Assembly (NCBI GenBank): GCA_946629405.1
Contig: CAMOXW010000058.1
Span: forward strand, 1 to 15,521
DNA length: 15,521 bases
Direction of reading: 5' to 3'
Origin: an uncultured Ruminococcus sp.
Lineage (GTDB): Bacteria > Bacillota_A > Clostridia > Oscillospirales > Ruminococcaceae
Under the pieces are notes generated by a model, which had not been told where the DNA came from, did not search any database, and saw only the letters and a program-made list of their open reading frames with translations. Positions 1 through 9,686 of this stretch are shown here, in pieces. The position numbers were made by a program, and so were the translations under genes. The stretch's first letter is position 1. Each line of letters begins with the position of its first letter.

Positions 1-359
1 GCGGCCTCCGCGGGGTGGCCGGTGTCCTGCTGCTGAGGCGGCTCACGGTAGCCGTTATATTGCTGCTGAGGCTGCTGCTGGTAGCCGCTGTACCGCTGCT
101 GAGGCTGCTCACGGTAGCCGCTATACTGCTGCTGAGGCTGCTCACGGTAGCCGTTGTACTGCTGCTGAGGCTGCTCACGGTAGCCGTTATATTGCTGCTG
201 AGGCTGCTCACGGTAGCCGTTATACTGCTGCCGAGGCTGCTCACGGTAGTTGTTGTATTGCTGCGGCTGGCGCTCATTTTCAGGGAGCTCGAAGCAGATG
301 GTGTCCTGATCGTCGGTGTTGTTTATCCTGTGGTTGTTCCCGTGTTCTCTGTCTGGCAT
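1..359 (-). CDS. Gln/Tyr-rich repeat protein, N-terminal part (runs off the left edge)
   Basis: The reading frame is open from an ATG at 359-357 to the window edge, giving 119 codons with no stop. An AGGAG ribosome binding site at 366-370 lies 6 nt before the ATG. The first 30 residues are hydrophilic (MPDREHGNN..., then DDQDTICFELPENER). Residues 31-117 are an 11-residue tandem repeat with consensus QPQQQYNGYRE, rich in Gln, Tyr, Pro, Asn and Gly. No signal peptide or membrane segment is visible in this part. The gene lies 61 bases after the P-type ATPase-like gene on the same strand, so it is probably co-transcribed. I do not recognise the family. The low-complexity N-terminus is probably disordered, and any folded or membrane domain would lie beyond the window. 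Function unknown; that it is a real gene is well supported by the start signal and in-frame repeat. Confidence 0.75.
   Translation of the reverse strand, partial: MPDREHGNNHRINNTDDQDTICFELPENERQPQQYNNYREQPRQQYNGYREQPQQQYNGYREQPQQQYNGYREQPQQQYSGYREQPQQRYSGYQQQPQQQYNGYREPPQQQDTGHPAEA
9..269 (-). repeat. 33-bp in-frame tandem repeat encoding QPQQQYNGYRE units
   Basis: About eight units of 33 bp (the first is 30 bp, the last degenerate) follow each other without spacers. Each encodes an 11-residue unit. Variation is mostly synonymous (TAT/TAC, CAA/CAG) or conservative (N to S, Q to R), so the protein repeat is kept by selection or by recent duplication. Unit variants in order are QPQQYNNYRE, QPRQQYNGYRE, QPQQQYNGYRE (twice), QPQQQYSGYRE, QPQQRYSGYQQ, QPQQQYNGYRE and PPQQQDTGHPA. 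Confidence 0.9.
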
Positions 360-420: not shown

Positions 421-2964
421 TCAGATCTTTTTCAGCCTTACCGCGATATCTGTAGCGATAATGCAGGCTAAATTGTAAATGACGAGTGCAGATGCTGACA
501 TATAGACATAGCTTCTCACGAATGCCTTCGAGATTATCAGCGCCATACACAGACCGAGCCCGAGGAATATTGAAACTGTCTGGAGTATCAGTCCAATTAT
601 TGCAGAGGCGTGGATGACCTTCGTGCTTATGAGAAGCTGCGCGAGGGAGGTGAACTTGCCGGTCGTAGCCATTGAAGCGCTGAGCCGGACTGCCTTGCCT
701 GTCTCTGCATCGAAGTCCTCGTGGAGGCGCTTGGGGAGTATTCTTATCATATCCTCCGGAACGCCGAAAAGATCGTGGAGCTTTCTCACAGTGATGCACG
801 GGTCGATGCTTTTTATCACCATGCAGATCTTGTTTCTGCACAGCTTCTTCGCCCATTTTTTGACATTTTTGTCGCCGTAGAGCTCCACCACGAACATTGC
901 GGCGAGATTTCCTGAGATCGAGAGATAAAGGGCTTCCTGTCTGCCGCTTATGTATTCAGCCTCCTTCGCCTTTGTGGGGACGCCCTCGATGTTGTGGCTT
1001 GCCATCAGCTCGCGGTTGCCGAAAAGGATGCGTTTGTTGTTTATCCAGCCGCACATACCCATAGACTCCTCGAAGGAGTAGTTGTCTATGTGGTAGAGCA
1101 TTTCCTCGCTTCCGCCGGTGACGTCGCTGAACAGCTGTTTCATAATGCTGCCGCCGTGGTAGGTGAGGCTTGCCGCTTCGAGCAGAGCCTCGTCTATCTT
1201 GGTATTCGAGAAAACCTTGATGCTTTCGAGGTGAACGGTGCCTGCGGGGAACAGGTCACCCGCGTCAACGAGGACGGAATTGGCATCGTAGAAGTCGTCA
1301 ACGCTCTGATAGCCGAGGATTATCCCCCTGTTGTCATATGCCTTTGAAGCGTTTTTTTCGAGCGGACGGTTGACCACCAGAGGCATTGCAGTGCAGGCGG
1401 AGGCGCAAATCATCATGCTGAATATCGACATTCCGAACGAGAAGGTGCCTATTGCCGAGTATGAATCCCTGCGGCAGAAGGCTATGAAGATAGCTATCGC
1501 AGCCGAGAACAGCATACACATCGGTGCAGCCTTGCGGCAGTAGGTATCGGTCATATCTGACGAATAGGTGTATCTCAGGAAGTCTGTCAGGAACTCCGTG
1601 CGGCGGGTCGAGGCGAGTATCGGGAAGTCTCCGAGAGTGCCTCTTGTGAGGCGTTCAGCCCTGTCCTCATCGGTGACGAAGACGACTCCGCTGCGGTCAA
1701 CATTTTTTGATACGAAGCGGAAATTCCTTGCAGCCCTGCGGATTATCAGCAGCTTGCCGTAAGCGTTTATCAGCATGGCAAGTATTCCGACCGGCATATA
1801 GACATGGACGATATCGTCGCTCACAAGGTCAGTTGTGTAGAATGCCGCGGCTGCCGATACAATGCAGCTCAGTGCAGTTATCGCGGTCATGGAGTCGCTG
1901 TCCGGGCGGAAGGAAAGGAGGTTTTTCATTCCCTTAGAAATCACCGCGACGGATGAGATCATTGATATCACGCCGAGGACAAGCTGTGCGCCGATGAAGA
2001 ATCGGATGTGCTCAGACTTCTGGAAAAGGTCGATCATCGGTATGCCGAACTGATTCCCGAGCGTGAGATAGAGGCTCAGGAAGGAGGTCATAAGGAGTAT
2101 GAACACGCGCGAGGAGATAGTGCTTTTCAGCTCAAAGATATCTCTCCCGACGTCCTCGACATCGCCGTAGTAGTTGAAGTCAACGATGCGCTTGGTGCGT
2201 TTCTTTTTTGACTTTACGGAGAGGTATTCCTCCTGCTCCTGAGTGATATGCACATCGAGGGAGCTTGCGTCAACGTCGCCGCGCTGACTGAGGTCGAGGC
2301 TTGTGATCTCGGCTCTTGGTGCGGGAATTACCGGCTTTGCAGCTTCAACGGCAGCAGGAGAGGGGACTATATCCGTGATATGCTTTCTTCCCTCAGGGCT
2401 TTCGTTCTCAGCGATAAGAGCGGCGCGGGTCTTTTTTTTCTTGCGGAAGGACGGGGGAGTATACATATACTCTCCGTCGGGAGTTTCCTTATCGTATGTG
2501 AAGCCGGACTGTCTGCGGCGGTCGGGCTTACGGTGACGTTTTTTGCGTTCTATAGCCTCTTTGGCGCGGGTGGAATGGTTCATCCGGCGGATCTTCGGGG
2601 CTTCGTCCGCAGACATACCGGGAGGTGCGGACGGTTGGGCATATTGACCCTCGGGCTTGCGGACGGTGGTAGTTCTTATCTCGCCGGCGGCCTCCTTGCC
2701 GACCACAGAAATTTTCTGGCGGGAGAGGTCTGCGGGCTTGTACTCATCTGCTGGCTCAGCCTGACGGTGAGCGTTGTCGAAAAGTGACGATTTTTCATGT
2801 GAAAGGGTGACCCGGCTTTTTTCAGGCGGAGCAAGCTCAGGTGCTTCGACCGTGGAGTTGAGTATCTTCTGCGCGTCGACTCTGCCGACGCTTGTTTTTG
2901 GAGCCCCGCTTTCGGGTGAATACTCCTTGAGGATATCCTCAAGCGACATTTTCTGATCCGGCAT
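421..2964 (-). CDS. P1B-type ATPase-like membrane protein, probable pseudoenzyme
   Basis: This 847-residue protein starts at an ATG 2 nt after a GGAGGAG ribosome binding site, 9 nt after the rlmB stop. Residues 1-280 are charged, low-complexity and probably cytosolic, with basic patches such as KKRHRKPDRRR near 141-151. Eight likely membrane helices follow, at about 285-305, 323-343, 358-376, 386-407, 479-497, 503-527, 785-811 and 816-836. This is the P1B heavy-metal ATPase layout. The stretch from helix 6 (SACTAMPLV) through DNRGIILGYQSVDD to VLVDAGDLFPAG (D567) lines up with CPC...NGILIKGG...VVFDKTGTLTxG. GWINNKRILFGNRELM (639-654) resembles the nucleotide-binding domain. The CPC, DKTGT and GDGxND motifs are lost. 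The actuator region between helices 4 and 5 is short (about 70 residues) and lacks TGES. Transport by ATP hydrolysis therefore seems unlikely, and a scaffold or sensor role is a guess. Family likeness is moderately sure; the biological role is unknown. Confidence 0.65.
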   Translation of the reverse strand: MPDQKMSLEDILKEYSPESGAPKTSVGRVDAQKILNSTVEAPELAPPEKSRVTLSHEKSSLFDNAHRQAEPADEYKPADLSRQKISVVGKEAAGEIRTTTVRKPEGQYAQPSAPPGMSADEAPKIRRMNHSTRAKEAIERKKRHRKPDRRRQSGFTYDKETPDGEYMYTPPSFRKKKKTRAALIAENESPEGRKHITDIVPSPAAVEAAKPVIPAPRAEITSLDLSQRGDVDASSLDVHITQEQEEYLSVKSKKKRTKRIVDFNYYGDVEDVGRDIFELKSTISSRVFILLMTSFLSLYLTLGNQFGIPMIDLFQKSEHIRFFIGAQLVLGVISMISSVAVISKGMKNLLSFRPDSDSMTAITALSCIVSAAAAFYTTDLVSDDIVHVYMPVGILAMLINAYGKLLIIRRAARNFRFVSKNVDRSGVVFVTDEDRAERLTRGTLGDFPILASTRRTEFLTDFLRYTYSSDMTDTYCRKAAPMCMLFSAAIAIFIAFCRRDSYSAIGTFSFGMSIFSMMICASACTAMPLVVNRPLEKNASKAYDNRGIILGYQSVDDFYDANSVLVDAGDLFPAGTVHLESIKVFSNTKIDEALLEAASLTYHGGSIMKQLFSDVTGGSEEMLYHIDNYSFEESMGMCGWINNKRILFGNRELMASHNIEGVPTKAKEAEYISGRQEALYLSISGNLAAMFVVELYGDKNVKKWAKKLCRNKICMVIKSIDPCITVRKLHDLFGVPEDMIRILPKRLHEDFDAETGKAVRLSASMATTGKFTSLAQLLISTKVIHASAIIGLILQTVSIFLGLGLCMALIISKAFVRSYVYMSASALVIYNLACIIATDIAVRLKKI

Positions 2965-3829: not shown

Positions 3830-4663
3830 TCACTCATCCCTGCCTACAATATCAATGACTGAAAGCTCAGGACGGTTGAAAATTCTTGGTATGAAGATCA
3901 TTCTGAGGGGCTTTGCGAGCCCGCGGCTTATGATCTGGACGGAATCGCCGTACTCATACATACCGCAGGTACGTTCCGGGAACAGACCCTGACCGGGAGC
4001 ATAAAGCCCCTGATCGAGCAGCTTTGGTATACGCCACTGTCCTCCGTGGGCATGGCCTGAGAGCACGAGGTCGAAGCGGGTGCTGCCGGTGCCGAGGTAA
4101 TCGTCCATATATTCAGGCTTGTGGGCGATGAGGATATTGTAGTGATCGCCGTCGAGGTCATTGAGGCAGTCTGCGAGCTGGTGCTTGTAGGTGGGATCGA
4201 CCGCACCGTACAGTCTTATGCTGCTGCCGTTTATGCTGAGCTCAGCGCGCTCTCCCATGAGCATCTGAACGCCTGTTTCACGGACGTTCTCGAAGAAATC
4301 CCCGATATCGTCGTGCATGAATTCGTGGTTTCCCGGGGTGTAATAGCACGGGTACATTGCCGCAGCCTTACGCATTGCGGTGAGGGCATTTTTTGTGTAG
4401 AACCAGCCGTCAATGACGTCGCCGCCGAATATCACGATATCAGGCGCTATACGGTCAAGCTCGTCCATTAGTGCGGACTGATCCCTTCCGCCGTAGATAC
4501 AGTTATGGAGGTCGGAGATAAAGGCTATCCTGACGCGTCCGCTGATCTTGTCGGAGCGCACGGTATAATGCACCGTTTCCATTTCATATCCGGCGATAAA
4601 GAGAGTGAGGGTGACCATAAGTGTGAGGCAGAATGCGATGAACCTGTGCCTTCGCTTATCCAT
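3830..4663 (-). CDS. Membrane-anchored calcineurin-like metallophosphoesterase (YkuE/YaeI type)
   Basis: This 277-residue protein has one N-terminal membrane segment (about 8-25), preceded by a basic MDKRRHR, so the catalytic domain probably faces outside the cell. The dimetal site is complete: SDLHN (D51, H53), GGD (80-82), GNHE (111-114), AHKPEY (H181) and SGHAHGGQW (202-210). Such enzymes hydrolyse phosphomonoesters or diesters, and YkuE/YaeI relatives act on undecaprenyl- or lipid-linked or other phosphoesters; the substrate here cannot be read from sequence. The start lies 2 nt after the ACP stop with no clear ribosome binding site, which suggests translational coupling to the ACP gene and hence membership of the acylation operon. 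A role in trimming a phosphoester in the same surface polymer is only a hypothesis. Confidence 0.85.
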   Translation of the reverse strand: MDKRRHRFIAFCLTLMVTLTLFIAGYEMETVHYTVRSDKISGRVRIAFISDLHNCIYGGRDQSALMDELDRIAPDIVIFGGDVIDGWFYTKNALTAMRKAAAMYPCYYTPGNHEFMHDDIGDFFENVRETGVQMLMGERAELSINGSSIRLYGAVDPTYKHQLADCLNDLDGDHYNILIAHKPEYMDDYLGTGSTRFDLVLSGHAHGGQWRIPKLLDQGLYAPGQGLFPERTCGMYEYGDSVQIISRGLAKPLRMIFIPRIFNRPELSVIDIVGRDE

Positions 4664-4664
4664 A

Positions 4665-4907
4665 TCAGCAGCCGCGTTCGCAGATTATTCTTATCATCTC
4701 GCCGACGTTCTTCATGCCGGAAACCTCACGCATTTTGAATTTCATGCTGAATTCGTCCTCAACAGCGGCTATTAGGTTGATATGCTCGATGCTGTCCCAG
4801 TCCTCGATGTCTGCGGATGTGGTATTATCGTCAACAGTGATGCTCTTGTCGCCGAAAACGTCCCTGAAGACGCCGCTTAGCCTGCTGATAACTTCTTCTT
4901 TATTCAT
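4665..4907 (-). CDS. Acyl carrier protein paired with FkbH
   Basis: The product is an 80-residue, acidic, all-helical carrier protein. The phosphopantetheine attachment site is Ser39 in DWDSIEHINLI, with Ile in place of the more common Leu after the serine. The ATG overlaps the FkbH stop as ATGA (4904-4907), so the two are translationally coupled and should be made in equal amounts. AAGGAG lies upstream inside the FkbH gene. Its position directly after a FkbH enzyme suggests that it carries the three-carbon unit loaded by FkbH, not fatty acid chains. It fills the place that DltC has in the D-alanylation operon. A 4'-phosphopantetheinyl transferase encoded elsewhere is needed. A general fatty-acid ACP is unlikely given the context. 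Confidence 0.9.
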   Translation of the reverse strand: MNKEEVISRLSGVFRDVFGDKSITVDDNTTSADIEDWDSIEHINLIAAVEDEFSMKFKMREVSGMKNVGEMIRIICERGC

Positions 4908-6691
4908 GACTGTAGCTCCTTTTTGATTACCTTGTTTTTGTTTTCATAGTTCTCAAGCTCAAGGCTCCAGACGGAGTCGCCGTTATCCTTTTTAGCGTCA
5001 AGGGTGAAGCCGAAGCTGCCGTAGAGCTGAGCGACCATAGCGTTCTTTGGGGTCCTGAAATAATAGCCTATGAGCCGTTTTACACCGCGTTCACGGCACT
5101 TTGCGGCAAGCTCGTCCAGCATGGCGAGCTCCATATCTCTTTTCAGCACGCGGCAGCTCATGAGCCAGAGCTCTATATGAGCGGTATCGCCCTCACATCT
5201 TGCAATGACGACGGAAACAATGCCGTTGTCGCCGAATTTATCAGTAAGTCTTCCGCATAGCCGGATGTGGTCGCAGCTTTCGCAGACGTCGGCTATCTCC
5301 TTTTCGCTGAAGCGTTTGGTAGTGAGGTTGAACTGGTTGCTCTTGTTGGTGAGCTGGGTTATTCTCTGCCGGTATACCGGCTCGAAGTCGGTGATCCTCG
5401 CACACATTTCAAGGCTCAGGAGGTAGTCGGTGTAGCTGCTGAACTGTTTCTGCTGAGCGGCACGCTTTGCGTTTGCGGCATACATCATGCTGCGCCGGAG
5501 GTCGTCGCCGGAGACGGAGGTGACCTCAAAAAAGCCACCGCGGCTGAGGGTGTACATAGCATCGCTGACCGTGGACAAACATATCGTCTGCACCTGCGGG
5601 AGTTGCGCCTCTGTCATAGCACATTCAGCGGGATTGTCATCGATGAATACGAAGCTTTCCGCAAGGAGTCCGAGCTCGTCGGCAGAAGCCTGGATATTGG
5701 TGTCTTTGCTGTCCCAGTTGGCTTTAATGGAAACGAAGTCGTCCGGATGAAGGAGGCAGCATGGGTGGCTGAGCCCAAGGAGGGCTTTCTCCTCGTCATT
5801 TTTGGAGCATACCGCGAGCAGTACACCGAAGTCCTTGAAGCCTCTGATGAATTTCTGGAATTCGCTGTGAGCCTGTCCTACGGCAGTTTCGGGGCCTATT
5901 TCGATGCCGTCAATTCCGTCGTCGCCGATGACGCCGCCCCAGAGGGTATTGTCGAGGTCGAGGTCGATGACCTTGTGGTTCCTGCCGTAGAGGGACTTGA
6001 TGATATTGGCGATGCTGAAAGCGAGGTCGGGGATAACGGCAGTGCTCATGGCGTACTTATAAAGGTACCATGCCTCCGCGTCGTGCCATTTTTCAAGTCC
6101 GAGGGCGGCTGAGAGATAGTTTATATCGTTGATATAGAATCCGGTGTGAGTGCGGGCATAGTCCGCGAGGCGGACGTTCATACGGCTGATGAAAGCAGCC
6201 TGTCCGGAGGGACTGTAGCAGTCGTAGCTTCCTGTTCTGCGGAAAAGCGGGAGTTCAAAGTTATTCTGTATCACCGGGCAGCCGAAGCGTTTTGAGATGC
6301 CCTCCCAGACCTGACAGAACAGCGAGAACTGCTCGTCGAGGAGAGCCTCGGCCTGCTGTACGGTAACAGAGGCACTGTCCGGAATGAGACTCAGATTGCG
6401 AGAGGTCGTGTGGATATAGACGATATCCGGCGAAAAGCTGCTTAGCTCCGGCGAGCCGAAAACGGCGTCCTCATAGAACCTGTTGTACTCTGAAACATAG
6501 AATTCCGGGTCGATGCCGCAGTTGAGGAGGAATAGTCTTAGCATTGAGACCACATGGTCGGCAGTTGAGCCGCCGAGCACCGCGATCTTCTTTTTTATGC
6601 GTGCAGAGCCGTCCGAGATCAGTTTTTTTTCGAGGTCGCGCCTGTTTCTGAGGATGGCCTTGCTGTCGAATGGGAAAACGAGTTCCTTCAT
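4904..6691 (-). CDS. FkbH-type HAD enzyme (glyceryl-ACP loading)
   Basis: FkbH-family proteins use 1,3-bisphosphoglycerate to load a glyceryl unit on an ACP, with loss of phosphate. This 595-residue copy has three parts. Residues 1-235 form an SGNH-like N-terminal region with GGST at 40-43. The HAD core has DLDLDNTLWGGVIGDDG (nucleophile D245, acid/base D247), AVCSKND (S296), a conserved lysine near K323 and FVFIDDNPAE (D351, D352). The C-terminal part carries the FkbH signature QLTNKSNQFNLTTKRF (446-461) and a GNAT-like domain with FGDNGIVSVV and a GFTL end. The start follows an AGGAGG site at 7 nt spacing, 10 nt after the DHHW gene. It overlaps the ACP gene by 4 bp, so enzyme and carrier are a natural pair. 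The exact acyl unit (glyceryl, phosphoglyceryl or lactyl) cannot be read from sequence. Confidence 0.9.
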   Translation of the reverse strand: MKELVFPFDSKAILRNRRDLEKKLISDGSARIKKKIAVLGGSTADHVVSMLRLFLLNCGIDPEFYVSEYNRFYEDAVFGSPELSSFSPDIVYIHTTSRNLSLIPDSASVTVQQAEALLDEQFSLFCQVWEGISKRFGCPVIQNNFELPLFRRTGSYDCYSPSGQAAFISRMNVRLADYARTHTGFYINDINYLSAALGLEKWHDAEAWYLYKYAMSTAVIPDLAFSIANIIKSLYGRNHKVIDLDLDNTLWGGVIGDDGIDGIEIGPETAVGQAHSEFQKFIRGFKDFGVLLAVCSKNDEEKALLGLSHPCCLLHPDDFVSIKANWDSKDTNIQASADELGLLAESFVFIDDNPAECAMTEAQLPQVQTICLSTVSDAMYTLSRGGFFEVTSVSGDDLRRSMMYAANAKRAAQQKQFSSYTDYLLSLEMCARITDFEPVYRQRITQLTNKSNQFNLTTKRFSEKEIADVCESCDHIRLCGRLTDKFGDNGIVSVVIARCEGDTAHIELWLMSCRVLKRDMELAMLDELAAKCRERGVKRLIGYYFRTPKNAMVAQLYGSFGFTLDAKKDNGDSVWSLELENYENKNKVIKKELQS

Positions 6692-6701
6692 GCGGTGCCT
6701 C

Positions 6702-8273
6702 CTATTTGTGAAGATTATTGTAGATATTGGTGCGGTTTACGCCGACAGCCGAATAGGAGCACATCGAGAACAGCATATCCGTAGCGCCGACCTGTTTTGC
6801 GAAGTCCGCGGCGTTGAGGCCGAAATAGCGTATATCGCAGAGGTAGATATTCTCGAATGAGCCTGTAAGGAAGGGCAGGAGCGCATTGCCGTAGCTGTCC
6901 TTGAAAATAACGAGTGTTCTGCCGTTCTTGCAGTTTGTCTGAACGTGTGCGATCCTGTCGTCCATGCCGAAGACCATATAATATCCCGAGGTGCCGAACC
7001 AGGATGGGTCGAGGATTAGCGGGACTGACTTGGGGTTTCTGAACGAGGTGTCATACTGAGTGACAGTGACATCCTGCTTGGGGATATAGTAGACGAAATC
7101 CTCCGGATTATTCAGGAGCTTTGAGCTCTGGGTGAAGCTGTAGAGAGTGCCGACATAGCCCTCGAGGGTGACCTTGTCGAACTGCGAGATATCGGTGAAC
7201 GGAACACCTGCGGTGCGAGCGAATTCCTCCGCCGCGTAGTAAGCGCCGAGCGGCTGCCAGTGGTGGTCAGTGCGGGAGTAGATCGGCTCATCCTTATGCT
7301 TTTCGAGGTTGGAATAGGCATCGACCGCCATAACGCCCTTGTATTCGGCAGCCATAGAGTCGAAGTCAGCCTTTTCGCTTGCGGCGAGGTCCTTGTACTT
7401 ATCGGGCAGGTAGAACGAGCAGGCGGTAGGGAGGGGCATAGACCAGATATTGACATCGGGTAGCGCCTCCTTGTACTCATTGAGGTATGAGGCGTATTGT
7501 TTCTCGCAGCCCCAGCCGCCTCCGTAGAGGGTGATACCGCGCTTGTTGACGATGAGGATATTGTTAGTGAGCTCTCCGTCCGCGGCGGCAGGGTTGTCTG
7601 CTGGGGGAGTGATCGTAGTTGCAGGCACGGTAGTTTCGGCAGGGGGAGCGGCCGTAGTGATTTCGGTGGTGACAGCGGGTGTATCGCTGGTATTTACGGA
7701 GCTTTGCAGGTCAGTCGTGGTGATGACGGTAGTAGTGACGGCTGCTGTGACCGTGGGAGAAGTTATAGCGGGACTGCTGTGTTCATAGGCACTTCCATAG
7801 AGTTCGACCTCGTCATCACCGCCGTAGGGTCTGCCTTTGAGGGGGATGAGCTTGTCAGAGATGAATCGTTTTATCTGCGACCTGTTGTGGACGGTATCGT
7901 CGAAATAATCAGCAACGGCGGCGGTATAGTCGCCGCTGAGGTAGCTGCTGAGTGAAAAGTCGGGAAACTTTGTGAGGTAGCGATTTTCATCCTCGGCGAC
8001 TTTTTCGTGTTTGAGGCAGGTCATATAAAAAGTGCCGAAGGCGAGTATCCCGCCTATCAGGACGACATTTGCCGCAGCTATCGCGTGGGTGAGGCTGCAG
8101 CGGCGTTTTTCGGCGGTTTCTTTTACGGCGGAAGTGACCGGGACATCTATCTTAGTGCGGCTGCGGTCTGTGGCTTTGACAGCGATAACAGCGCGGCGGC
8201 GGGAATTATTCCTGCGTTTTTTCTTCTTTCTTTTAGGTTTGCCGTATCTTTGGGCGGCAGCATAGTAACTCAT
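6702..8273 (-). CDS. DHHW-family (AlgX/AlgJ/DltD-like) membrane-anchored SGNH protein
   Basis: This 523-residue protein starts with a very basic cytosolic tail (KPKRKKKKRRNNSRRR, 12-27), then one membrane helix at about 64-86. An external segment (ENRYLTKFPDFS..., 96-160) is typical of DHHW proteins. A Thr/Pro/Ala-rich linker follows (about 164-232) and then the catalytic region. The motif DHHW is at 336-339; by analogy with AlgX, D336 and H338 would be triad members and S460 in FKDSYGN the nucleophile. The tail DIRYF...VGATDMLFSMCSYSAVG matches the family end. In alginate and related systems such proteins work next to an MBOAT protein to move the acyl group onto the polysaccharide. The gene lies 12 nt after the MBOAT stop, with an AGAGGTT ribosome binding site. 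The Thr-rich linker inside the domain is longer than expected. Polymer substrate unknown. Confidence 0.85.
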   Translation of the reverse strand: MSYYAAAQRYGKPKRKKKKRRNNSRRRAVIAVKATDRSRTKIDVPVTSAVKETAEKRRCSLTHAIAAANVVLIGGILAFGTFYMTCLKHEKVAEDENRYLTKFPDFSLSSYLSGDYTAAVADYFDDTVHNRSQIKRFISDKLIPLKGRPYGGDDEVELYGSAYEHSSPAITSPTVTAAVTTTVITTTDLQSSVNTSDTPAVTTEITTAAPPAETTVPATTITPPADNPAAADGELTNNILIVNKRGITLYGGGWGCEKQYASYLNEYKEALPDVNIWSMPLPTACSFYLPDKYKDLAASEKADFDSMAAEYKGVMAVDAYSNLEKHKDEPIYSRTDHHWQPLGAYYAAEEFARTAGVPFTDISQFDKVTLEGYVGTLYSFTQSSKLLNNPEDFVYYIPKQDVTVTQYDTSFRNPKSVPLILDPSWFGTSGYYMVFGMDDRIAHVQTNCKNGRTLVIFKDSYGNALLPFLTGSFENIYLCDIRYFGLNAADFAKQVGATDMLFSMCSYSAVGVNRTNIYNNLHK

Positions 8274-8285
8274 TTTTAACCTCTG

Positions 8286-9686
8286 TCAGAATCTGAAATA
8301 AAGGAATGGATTTGTAGTCGCATCGACGAGCATGATGCTTGATACGAGGAGGAGTGCGGCTGATGAAAGAGCGGCAGCGGAGCTCAGAGCGCTCCTTGCG
8401 GCGAAGCTTTTTTCGGAGAGTTTTTTTGCGGTGTCGATAATTGGGAAGGTGCATATAACAGCCGCGATGAGGAGGAACATATTGTTTGTGAGGGATATCC
8501 TGTCCTGCAGGCCGATGAAGCCGGTCGTACCGATGCCGGCGATAGTGCGGAAGAATCTGCCGAGCCTGCCGAGGTCCTCGAAGTAGAATATCCCGAAGCC
8601 GATGATGATGACGAGCTTGCTGTAGATATGTCTTATGACGGCGGGGATCATTTTCATGCGTTTCTTGCCGATCTGCATTTCGATGAAGATGAACAGGCCG
8701 TAGTAAAGTCCCCAGAGGATGAAATTCCAGCTTGCGCCGTGCCAGATGCCGGTGCAGAGCCAGACGAGGAACAGGCCGCCGTACTTTCTGCGCTTGCCGA
8801 AAATGGGGATATAGAGGACGTAATCGCGAAAGAAGGTGCTGAGGGAGATATGCCAGCGCTGCCAGAATTCGGTGATATCCCTGCATACGAAGGGGTGGCG
8901 GAAGTTCTCATCGAAGTGGAAGCCGAAGATCCTTCCGAGGCCGATAGCGATATCGGAATAGCCTGAAAAGTCAAAGTAGATCTGCAAAGCGTAGGCAATG
9001 ACGCCGTACCATGCTCCGAACACGGTAGCGGTAGAGATGCTGCCGAGGGTGCTGTCAACGATGAGGCTGAGCTGATTAGCGAGGAGGACTTTTTTACCGA
9101 GCCCGAGAGCCATGCGGTCGAAGCCGTAGGCGACGTCGGCAGCGGAGACCTTACGTTCGGTTATTTCCTTTTCGATAGTGCTGTAGCGGACGATAGGGCC
9201 GGCGACGAGCTGCGGGAAAAGCGCGAGGTAGAGCAGATAATTCCTGAAGCTTTTCTGGGCATCGACCTTTTCCCAGTGGCAGTCGATGATATAGGAGATA
9301 GTCTGGAAGGTATAGAAACTGATGCCGATAGGGAGCCTCACGTCCGGGACTGGGAGCGAGCATGAAAAAAGGGCGTTGACATTCTCCACGATAAAGCCGC
9401 TGTACTTGAATACTCCGAGCATGAGCAGGTCGAAAACGACAGCGAAGGCAGCAGCGGCGGTATCTCCGGGCTTTCCGCGGTACTTGTCAATAAGGAGACC
9501 GGCGGCATAGTTTACGAAGGCGCTCAGCAGCATGAGCAGGACGAAGGCCGGCTCACCCCATGCGTAGAATATCAGTGAGAAGATGATCAACACCGTATTT
9601 TTATGTTTAGTACCCCTTGCGGCGGCGTAGGTCAGGAGACAAACGGGCAGAAAGAGGTATATGAAGAATAGTCTTGAGAAGATCAT
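8286..9686 (-). CDS. MBOAT-family membrane O-acyltransferase (AlgI/DltB type)
   Basis: The protein has 466 residues and is mostly membrane helices. Conserved MBOAT features are RLPIGISFYTFQTISYIID (118-136), FPQLVAGPI (157-165), FDFSGYSDIAIGLGRIFGF (238-256), the RDITEFWQRWHISLSTFFRDY block (269-289, including W278-H279) and GIWHGASWNF (313-322) with the expected catalytic H316. These proteins move an acyl group from a cytosolic carrier to an acceptor on the outer face. The frame is open to an ATG at 9752, but I choose the ATG at 9686. It gives the usual MIFSRLFFIYLFLP start and follows AAGGCGGT at a workable distance, whereas the extra 22 residues are polar and basic. It is the first gene of the operon. 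Neighbouring FkbH and ACP suggest an unusual donor, a carrier-bound glyceryl-like group. Confidence 0.92.
   Translation of the reverse strand: MIFSRLFFIYLFLPVCLLTYAAARGTKHKNTVLIIFSLIFYAWGEPAFVLLMLLSAFVNYAAGLLIDKYRGKPGDTAAAAFAVVFDLLMLGVFKYSGFIVENVNALFSCSLPVPDVRLPIGISFYTFQTISYIIDCHWEKVDAQKSFRNYLLYLALFPQLVAGPIVRYSTIEKEITERKVSAADVAYGFDRMALGLGKKVLLANQLSLIVDSTLGSISTATVFGAWYGVIAYALQIYFDFSGYSDIAIGLGRIFGFHFDENFRHPFVCRDITEFWQRWHISLSTFFRDYVLYIPIFGKRRKYGGLFLVWLCTGIWHGASWNFILWGLYYGLFIFIEMQIGKKRMKMIPAVIRHIYSKLVIIIGFGIFYFEDLGRLGRFFRTIAGIGTTGFIGLQDRISLTNNMFLLIAAVICTFPIIDTAKKLSEKSFAARSALSSAAALSSAALLLVSSIMLVDATTNPFLYFRF

What the first reader, a model, noticed from the sequence alone, without database searches (positions are those of the whole stretch)
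3830..9686. Dlt-like surface acylation operon that uses FkbH and ACP in place of DltA and DltC
Seen: MBOAT, DHHW/SGNH, FkbH, ACP and metallophosphoesterase genes in one tight series (gaps 12, 10, -4 and 1 bases) behind one promoter. Known: Dlt systems pair a loading ligase, carrier protein, MBOAT protein and DltD; alginate systems pair MBOAT AlgI with AlgJ/AlgX; FkbH loads glycerate-derived units onto ACP. Inferred: the machine transfers a glyceryl-like (possibly lactyl or phosphoglyceryl) ester from ACP through the MBOAT protein to a wall polymer, a decoration different from D-alanine or acetate. This would tie surface charge and hydration to glycolytic 1,3-bisphosphoglycerate.
Basis: partly seen in the sequence, partly recalled or inferred. 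Interest (0 to 1): 0.78.

Follow-up and report, generated by a model that had tools for sequence, protein, structure and literature searches.

The report
Carrier-fed surface acylation operon, probably glyceryl
A rumen bacterium of the Ruminococcus group carries a five-gene operon that probably makes a three-carbon sugar-acid unit from glycolysis, loads it on a carrier protein and attaches it to a cell-surface polymer; such a route is known for D-alanine and, without a carrier, for acetate, but I found no report of it for this unit.

Summary
The five genes are there on the minus strand with exactly the stated gaps: MBOAT, DHHW (SGNH), FkbH, ACP, metallophosphoesterase. The first four form a real unit. 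In a draw of 391 Clostridia genomes, 22 of 22 full-length FkbH frames of the window's type have an MBOAT and an ACP within 7 kb; of 43 other frames 4 have an MBOAT. Where the operon is split, an MBOAT of the same clade sits elsewhere in the genome. Catalytic residues are intact, and the MBOAT ends in FLYFRF, the acyl-shuttle motif. [quoted passage not shown] the MBOAT moves the acyl group to its own C-terminal tyrosine; DHHW hands it to an outer polymer. The load and the acceptor are inferred. It is not a Dlt system: the pair is of the PatA1/PatB1 kind with a fused shuttle, without DltA or DltX. It differs from that kind by having a carrier and loader, which a 2025 paper says such pathways lack. 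Elsewhere in Clostridia VOC, or MaoC with or without a reductase, sits near the ACP, suggesting a family of C3 surface esters. New variant of a known kind.

The parts
8286..9686 (-). MBOAT acyltransferase, 466 aa; His316 (codon 8741-8739)
   Evidence: PF03062 95.7 bits; DltB (8jem, 6bug) best solved relatives by sequence and by fold; AlphaFold model pLDDT 88.9, pTM 0.89; H316 at least 90% conserved in 37 MBOATs
8289..8306 (-). C-terminal FLYFRF acyl-shuttle motif, Tyr463 (codon 8300-8298), behind model helices 393-411 and 428-455
   Evidence: F.Y..F in 44 of 44 full-length MBOATs of L005-L058; helices; motif and its function described in PMC12148441
6702..8273 (-). DHHW-family SGNH acyltransferase, 523 aa, one N-terminal helix 48-86 read as membrane anchor; Ser460, Asp336-His337-His338-Trp339, Asp480-x-Arg482-Tyr483
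   Evidence: PF14286 146.1 bits; model pLDDT 78.3; fold match to 4nzk (E 1.9e-36, 47% identity) and B. cereus PatB1 5v8d; D336 and S460 invariant, H338 and R482 at least 90% in the 32-sequence alignment
4904..6691 (-). FkbH-type HAD-IIIC glyceryl transferase/phosphatase, 595 aa; Asp245-x-Asp247, Ser296, Lys323, Asp351-Asp352, Cys513-Arg514
   Evidence: TIGR01686 256.8 bits, PF21211 41.8 bits; DxD in 140 of 140 and Cys-Arg in 138 of 138 FkbH sequences that reach that column
4665..4907 (-). acyl carrier protein, 80 aa, Ser39 (codon 4793-4791) in DWDSIEH
   Evidence: PF00550 21.3 bits; best solved relative 2lml, E 1e-13
3830..4663 (-). calcineurin-like metallophosphoesterase (YaeI-like, below that model's cut-off) with a hydrophobic N-terminus, accessory at most
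   Evidence: PF00149 61 bits, NF008460 62.9 bits, cut-off 188; missing from 6 of 38 complete loci

Best explanation
A carrier-fed MBOAT-SGNH envelope acylation system. Steps: (1) AcpS puts phosphopantetheine on ACP Ser39 (inferred). (2) FkbH takes the 3-phosphoglyceryl unit of glycolytic 1,3-bisphosphoglycerate, removes the phosphate with its HAD domain and leaves D-glyceryl as a thioester on the ACP, probably through Cys513 (inferred from the family). (3) The MBOAT binds glyceryl-ACP at the inner face and uses His316 to pass the acyl group to Tyr463 of its own FLYFRF tail at the outer face (inferred from PatA and DltB/DltX). (4) The DHHW protein takes it on Ser460 and esterifies an extracellular polymer (inferred from PatB/PatB1). 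Shown here: gene set, residues, predicted folds of MBOAT and DHHW, and co-inheritance of loader, carrier and this MBOAT/DHHW lineage. Not shown: the acyl group and the acceptor.
For: Linkage: 22 of 22 full-length window-type FkbH frames in a 391-genome Clostridia draw have MBOAT and ACP within 7 kb; 4 of 43 other FkbH frames have MBOAT. Reverse test from the DHHW side: of 13 fetched places with 50% or so identity or more to 4nzk, 10 lie beside FkbH and the genomes of the other 3 have a window-type FkbH elsewhere. Split operons: in 4 of 4 genomes where no MBOAT is seen next to DHHW-FkbH, one of two MBOATs elsewhere falls in the FkbH-linked MBOAT clade (100/100), the other does not. Specificity: 67 of 78 MBOAT frames in a separate draw have no carrier or loader nearby. 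Independent pairing: FkbH is linked to MBOATs of several separate lineages. Chemistry: HAD Asp pair and Cys-Arg invariant, shared with FkbH of clusters that look like methoxymalonyl sets by length and order; [quoted passage not shown] Shuttle Tyr present in 96 of 96 MBOAT frames (over 200 bits and 430 aa) of FkbH loci that are not cut by a contig end. DHHW Ser/Asp/His and DxRY Arg present (BcPatB1 motifs in PMC9487903, passages). No genuine DltA: 0 of 13 related genomes over the cut-off.
Against: No biochemical evidence for the load or the acceptor. The window's MBOAT clade is nested among carrier-less MBOATs that presumably use acetyl-CoA. Four of 80 loci with related FkbH (L059-L062) have full flanks and no MBOAT, so this FkbH-ACP set can serve other acyltransferases. 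A contig-cut FkbH of the same type (L160, 668 bits) fell just under the 700-bit line, which I set after seeing the scores; its 4.2-kb contig shows neither MBOAT nor ACP, so the count would be 22 of 23 with it. In L270-L272 the MBOAT is not adjacent, and in two of these genomes the distant MBOAT has a DHHW gene of its own. Sub-threshold ligase matches to the DltA model exist in all 13 genomes. The single promoter was not found. No polymer gene was recognised in the window.
Confidence: 0.68

Rival explanations
1. The MBOAT-DHHW pair is an ordinary acetyl-CoA-dependent O-acetyltransferase (PatA1/PatB1, CcsH/CcsI kind), and FkbH-ACP serves something else that happens to be co-transcribed.
For: The closest tree neighbours of the window's MBOAT clade outside it are carrier-less MBOATs, mostly with DHHW neighbours and similar tails; B. 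cereus PatB1 and clostridial CcsH/CcsI are described as O-acetylation pairs (PMC9487903, PMC7710045, passages).
Against: 22 of 22 linkage, an MBOAT clade that follows FkbH-ACP even when unlinked, repeated pairing with MBOATs of separate lineages, and no other acyl-ACP user recognised in the operon.
Confidence: 0.13
2. Same machine, but the ACP carries another acyl group: lactyl, phosphoglyceryl, a further modified C3 unit, or a fatty acid.
For: Related operons put a VOC gene, or MaoC with or without SDR, near ACP and MBOAT, so some members probably modify the load; trans-acting enzymes could do so in Ruminococcus.
Against: 0 of 54 loci L005-L058 have these genes in the stretch held; a dedicated FkbH argues against a fatty acid; the HAD residues are intact, against phosphoglyceryl.
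Confidence: 0.14
3. The acceptor is a membrane lipid or a small molecule and not a surface polymer.
For: MBOAT proteins also acylate lipids; no polymer gene was recognised in the window.
Against: Shuttle tail plus a DHHW partner place the final step outside, on the pattern of PatAB; in L144, L174, L175, L181 and L185 related sets lie among genes that look like glycosyltransferase or nucleotide-sugar genes by their start sequences (not scanned against a library).
Confidence: 0.05

Closest known systems
B. cereus PatA1/PatB1 and clostridial CcsH/CcsI (MBOAT plus DHHW, O-acetylation of secondary wall polymer or cellulose)
   Same: MBOAT with DHHW-family SGNH partner; DHHW, DxRY and Ser motifs; fold match to PatB1 and 4nzk; shuttle tail as described for such MBOATs.
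   Different: Own ACP and FkbH loader; donor is probably glyceryl-ACP, not acetyl-CoA.
Dlt system (DltA, DltB, DltC, DltD, DltX; teichoic acid D-alanylation)
   Same: Loader, carrier protein, MBOAT, SGNH protein; acyl-Tyr shuttle (in DltX).
   Different: Loader is FkbH, not an adenylating ligase; MBOAT and SGNH proteins belong to other branches; shuttle is fused to the MBOAT; no amino group on the presumed load.
FkbH-ACP modules of polyketide and tetronate pathways (Mad7/Mad8, passages; OzmB and FkbH, recalled)
   Same: FkbH family and catalytic residues, stand-alone ACP.
   Different: Here coupled to a membrane acyltransferase and not to a polyketide synthase or FabH-like enzyme.
Sinorhizobium meliloti set MBOAT-x-ACP-FkbH on a 1.65-Mb plasmid (L004)
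   Same: Same three core genes in one row.
   Different: Alphaproteobacterial; in place of DHHW a 409-aa protein annotated as TonB-dependent receptor, without a Pfam match; long branches in both trees. The published ACP SMb20651 of S. meliloti may or may not be this ACP (paper not held).

Membership tests
Dlt D-alanylation system | DltA ligase in operon or genome | tested here: not met
   None in the window; 0 of 13 related genomes over the DltA cut-off (weaker ligase matches in all 13), control over the cut-off in 2 of 14. The window's own genome is not held
Dlt D-alanylation system | MBOAT is DltB | tested here: not met
   TIGR04091 154 bits, cut-off 375; tree placement
Dlt D-alanylation system | SGNH partner is DltD | tested here: not met
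   PF14286 DHHW and PF16822 ALGX match, no DltD family
Dlt D-alanylation system | DltX microprotein with FxYxxF | tested here: not met
   Motif is at the MBOAT C-terminus instead; no gap in the operon large enough for dltX
Dlt D-alanylation system | dedicated carrier protein | tested here: met
   ACP 4907-4665, Ser39
PatA1/PatB1-type MBOAT-DHHW pair | DHHW-family SGNH protein with Ser, DHHW and DxRY blocks | tested here: met
   block names from PMC9487903
PatA1/PatB1-type MBOAT-DHHW pair | MBOAT with conserved His and C-terminal FxYxxF | tested here: met
   H316, FLYFRF
PatA1/PatB1-type MBOAT-DHHW pair | acyl-CoA donor, no carrier protein | tested here: not met
   Carrier and loader genes present and co-inherited; use of acyl-CoA itself not testable here
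FkbH glyceryl transferase/phosphatase family | family model over cut-off, HAD Asp pair, Cys-Arg motif | tested here: met
   TIGR01686 256.8 vs 146.65
FkbH glyceryl transferase/phosphatase family | loads glyceryl from 1,3-bisphosphoglycerate onto an ACP | not testable with these tools
   needs enzyme assay; an ACP gene overlaps the fkbH gene by 4 bases

The most novel reading that the evidence does not exclude
FkbH-ACP is a plug-in donor module that bacteria have joined several times to surface acyltransferases, and the genes beside the ACP set the ester: no extra gene gives D-glyceryl (Ruminococcus), a VOC epimerase-like gene inverts the alpha carbon, and MaoC plus a short-chain reductase turn glyceryl into lactyl by dehydration and reduction. 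This would be a whole family of C3 surface esters drawn from glycolysis and not yet seen chemically.
Probability: 0.4. Interest if true: 0.82.

Novelty: new variant of a known kind. Interest (0 to 1): 0.7.

Why it matters
PMC12148441 (abstract and passages) describes MBOAT-SGNH envelope acylation with acyl-CoA donors, and with a carrier only in Dlt. A carrier-fed pair with a fused shuttle tail would show that donor supply and acyl transfer are separable modules. It predicts a new surface ester in fibre-degrading gut and rumen bacteria, linked to a glycolytic intermediate. One DHHW protein from such a locus already has a crystal structure (4nzk, Eubacterium siraeum; the genome with the 100% match has DHHW-DHHW-FkbH-ACP), so the terminal enzyme is ready for testing.

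Tried and rejected
Ordinary Dlt operon: rejected (no DltA, DltD or DltX in the window; 0 of 13 genomes over the DltA cut-off). Polyketide or tetronate cluster: rejected, no synthase, FabH or dehydrogenase recognised among the window proteins scanned; the same goes for methoxymalonyl-type oxidation. Metallophosphoesterase as a core part: rejected, absent from 6 of 38 complete loci. C295 of FkbH as the thioester cysteine: rejected, it varies (71 of 140 C) while C513 does not. Known RNA families in the window: none over threshold. Acceptor search: 8 of 8 Ruminococcus genomes have a 622-659-aa frame with a sulfatase-domain match, about the length of LtaS (recalled), and 5 of 8 have a PF04464 match; this does not name the acceptor. 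Literature: 'FkbH' with 'MBOAT' 2 papers, both natural-product clusters where the two genes act in separate steps (passages); with 'exopolysaccharide' 1 paper, with 'polysaccharide' 3, judged from listings except one passage; 'MBOAT' with 'DHHW' 2 papers (passages); 'FkbH' with 'glyceryl' 8 papers, listing plus passages of one. The library lacks most subscription papers, so absence there is weak evidence.

Rows dropped: one search kept the best 80 of 148 loci. The 700-bit line was set after seeing the scores (lowest above 936, highest below 668); an earlier version on called genes gave 20 of 20 over 900 bits. For the FkbH tree I left out 24 loci by hand as near copies or contig-cut, and frames outside 550-700 aa. 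For the MBOAT tree I picked 45 FkbH loci by hand; three of these (L066, L075, L081) hold two or three MBOATs, all labelled FkbH, which inflates the count of label changes. The 45-row MBOAT tree used 20 carrier-less and 17 FkbH-linked loci picked by hand, plus the 8 frames in question. One search left out MBOAT frames up to 430 aa, up to 200 bits or with X in the tail. In one search the 78 frames come from 75 fetched regions plus three frames of G003; two further FkbH-linked places of that draw (L142, L151) were held already and are not in the 78; one region (L228) gave no frame. Of 6 genomes drawn for low-identity DHHW-MBOAT pairs, 5 have no FkbH; the sixth (G668) has two FkbH frames, one of the window's type.
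Full report
WHAT IS THERE. The minus strand of the window carries MBOAT (9686-8286), DHHW (8273-6702), FkbH (6691-4904), ACP (4907-4665) and a metallophosphoesterase (4663-3830), with gaps 12, 10, -4 and 1. Family scans confirm each, the ACP only just over the Pfam cut-off. rlmB and a P-type-ATPase-like gene follow. The best relatives of FkbH in species genomes are 80% identical and come from rumen Ruminococcus, R. flavefaciens among them; no whole genome is held for the window itself. The consensus scan found no minus-strand promoter between 9686 and 11684 but a strong one before rlmB, so one transcript for the five genes is likely from spacing only.

IS THE SET REAL. A scan of species genomes gave 80 loci with related FkbH (best 80 of 148). 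69 of 80 hold an MBOAT, 78 an ACP, 56 a DHHW gene, 50 all three. Of the 11 without MBOAT, seven (L011, L036, L038, L039, L044, L045, L080) are on short contigs or reach a contig end; four (L059-L062) have full flanks and lack it. Because that scan was seeded with the window's FkbH I made an independent draw: 391 Clostridia genomes searched with the FkbH model, 52 over the cut-off. I fetched the surroundings and counted 65 FkbH frames: all 22 that score over 700 bits on a full-length profile of the window's type have MBOAT and ACP within 7 kb; of the other 43, 4 have MBOAT. One of the 43 (L160, 668 bits, cut by its contig) is of the window's type and shows neither; with it the count is 22 of 23. 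Others of the 43 are in frames of 1,800-3,500 aa that look like synthetases, and the seven loci I printed look like methoxymalonyl-type, flagellar nonulosonate or other sugar loci (labels read from protein starts, not scanned).

SPLIT OPERONS AS A TEST. Searching 297 genomes of the family with the solved DHHW protein 4nzk gave a 100% match in one genome, so Eubacterium siraeum. It has DHHW-DHHW-FkbH-ACP and no MBOAT match in the 16 kb held; two other genomes are alike with full flanks (L271, L272), and a fourth (L160) on a 4.2-kb contig. Each of these four genomes has two MBOATs elsewhere; exactly one in each falls inside the clade of FkbH-linked MBOATs (21 rows, 100/100), the other outside. 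In two of the four (L294, L295) that MBOAT has a DHHW gene of its own beside it. From the DHHW side: of 13 places with the higher identities (L270-L282), 10 lie beside FkbH and 3 do not; the three genomes of the latter all have a window-type FkbH elsewhere, and one of them (G504) has a single MBOAT in all, with FkbH 28 kb away. Genomes drawn for low-identity DHHW-MBOAT pairs: 5 of 6 have no FkbH; the sixth has two. So this MBOAT/DHHW lineage follows FkbH-ACP even when unlinked.

MECHANISM. FkbH: the HAD Asp pair is present in 140 of 140 sequences compared, and Cys513-Arg514 in 138 of 138 that reach the column, including FkbH from clusters that look like methoxymalonyl sets. [quoted passage not shown] That Cys513 is the acyl-carrying residue is my inference. 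MBOAT: the model (pLDDT 88.9) matches DltB best in fold, has two helices beyond the DltB sequence match and ends in FLYFRF. PMC12148441 (abstract and passages) shows that PatA acylates the Tyr of such a tail, that DltB uses DltX for this, and states that other MBOAT/SGNH pathways lack a carrier protein. The tail is F.Y..F in 44 of 44 full-length MBOATs of L005-L058; over all 109 MBOAT frames compared the Tyr is missing in three, one of them a contig-cut frame. DHHW: the model (pLDDT 78.3) matches 4nzk (47% identity) and B. cereus PatB1; Ser460, Asp336, His338 and Arg482 correspond to the motifs named for PatB1 (PMC9487903, passages; conservation). Together this gives: 1,3-bisphosphoglycerate, glyceryl-ACP, glyceryl-Tyr463, glyceryl-Ser460, polymer ester. 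Only residues and folds are shown; every transfer step is inferred.

WHY NOT DLT, AND WHY NOT PLAIN ACETYLATION. DltA, DltD and DltX are absent from the window and the MBOAT fails the DltB model; 13 related genomes have no DltA over the cut-off, though all have weaker ligase matches. In a draw of 69 Clostridia genomes, 78 MBOAT frames were classed by neighbours on the same strand within 5.5 kb: 67 no carrier or loader, 8 adenylating ligase, 2 FkbH, 1 ACP only (two more FkbH-linked places of the draw were already held). In the MBOAT tree the window lies in a clade of 17 FkbH-linked rows (100) nested among carrier-less MBOATs; a second clade of 27 rows (100) holds only carrier-linked MBOATs, 21 with FkbH and 6 with an adenylating ligase or ACP. 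The tree needs at least 6 changes of the FkbH label on well-supported branches, a number inflated by three loci with several MBOATs. So the window's lineage appears to be a carrier-less type that gained a carrier, independently of Dlt. This nesting is also the main argument for the acetyl-CoA rival.

VARIANTS. Outside the window's type, the ACP neighbourhood changes in a regular way: VOC (Glyoxalase_4), or MaoC with or without SDR, or neither. L174 and L175 share gene order, FkbH, an asparagine synthase-like gene and MBOAT, but one has MaoC+SDR where the other has VOC (FkbH clade of L174-L176 support 100). VOC enzymes such as methylmalonyl-CoA epimerase act on the alpha carbon of thioesters, and MaoC plus SDR could turn glyceryl into lactyl, as proposed for the bryostatin starter (both recalled). 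None of the 54 loci L005-L058 has VOC, MaoC or SDR matches in the stretch held, 36 of them with at least 3.5 kb on both sides. VOC also accompanies FkbH-ACP without MBOAT (L161-L163, L129).

VERDICT. Observation confirmed, apart from the promoter; interpretation partly supported. New variant of the MBOAT-SGNH envelope acylation kind, with a carrier and an FkbH loader; load probably glyceryl; acceptor unknown.

Noticed in passing
window 421-2964, minus strand: P-type-ATPase-like protein (weak CopA match) without the DKTGT phosphorylation motif (recalled motif); 0 of 39 relatives over 500 bits have it. Usually next to rlmB in the related loci; looks like a non-pumping relative.
   Followed up: partly
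window 27-264: Seven 33-base tandem repeats (88% matches) which on the minus strand read as REQPQQQYNGY-like repeats of a protein that runs off the window.
   Followed up: no
L086 5864-7252 and L089 5401-6786: A second MBOAT with a DHHW neighbour in R. flavefaciens ends in MLLMKL or QLFIKL, with no shuttle tyrosine.
   Followed up: no
L090, L258, L261, L262, L263: MBOATs with a tyrosine shuttle-like tail beside an adenylating ligase, in four of the five with an ACP seed match (L090 is the seed itself); in the tree next to FkbH-linked MBOATs. A second non-Dlt carrier-fed type.
   Followed up: partly
L161-L163, L129: FkbH-ACP-VOC sets, without MBOAT, in loci that look like flagellar nonulosonate synthesis (read from protein starts in L161, L163, L129), perhaps supplying an N-acyl group.
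   Followed up: no
L135, L139, L151: A short (about 350 aa) FkbH beside an MBOAT with a tyrosine tail and a 600-aa protein; the L135 protein has a polysaccharide deacetylase domain, the other two match it.
   Followed up: no
L002: FkbH-ACP-MaoC-SDR set on a 267-kb plasmid of Subdoligranulum variabile typed as mobilizable.
   Followed up: no
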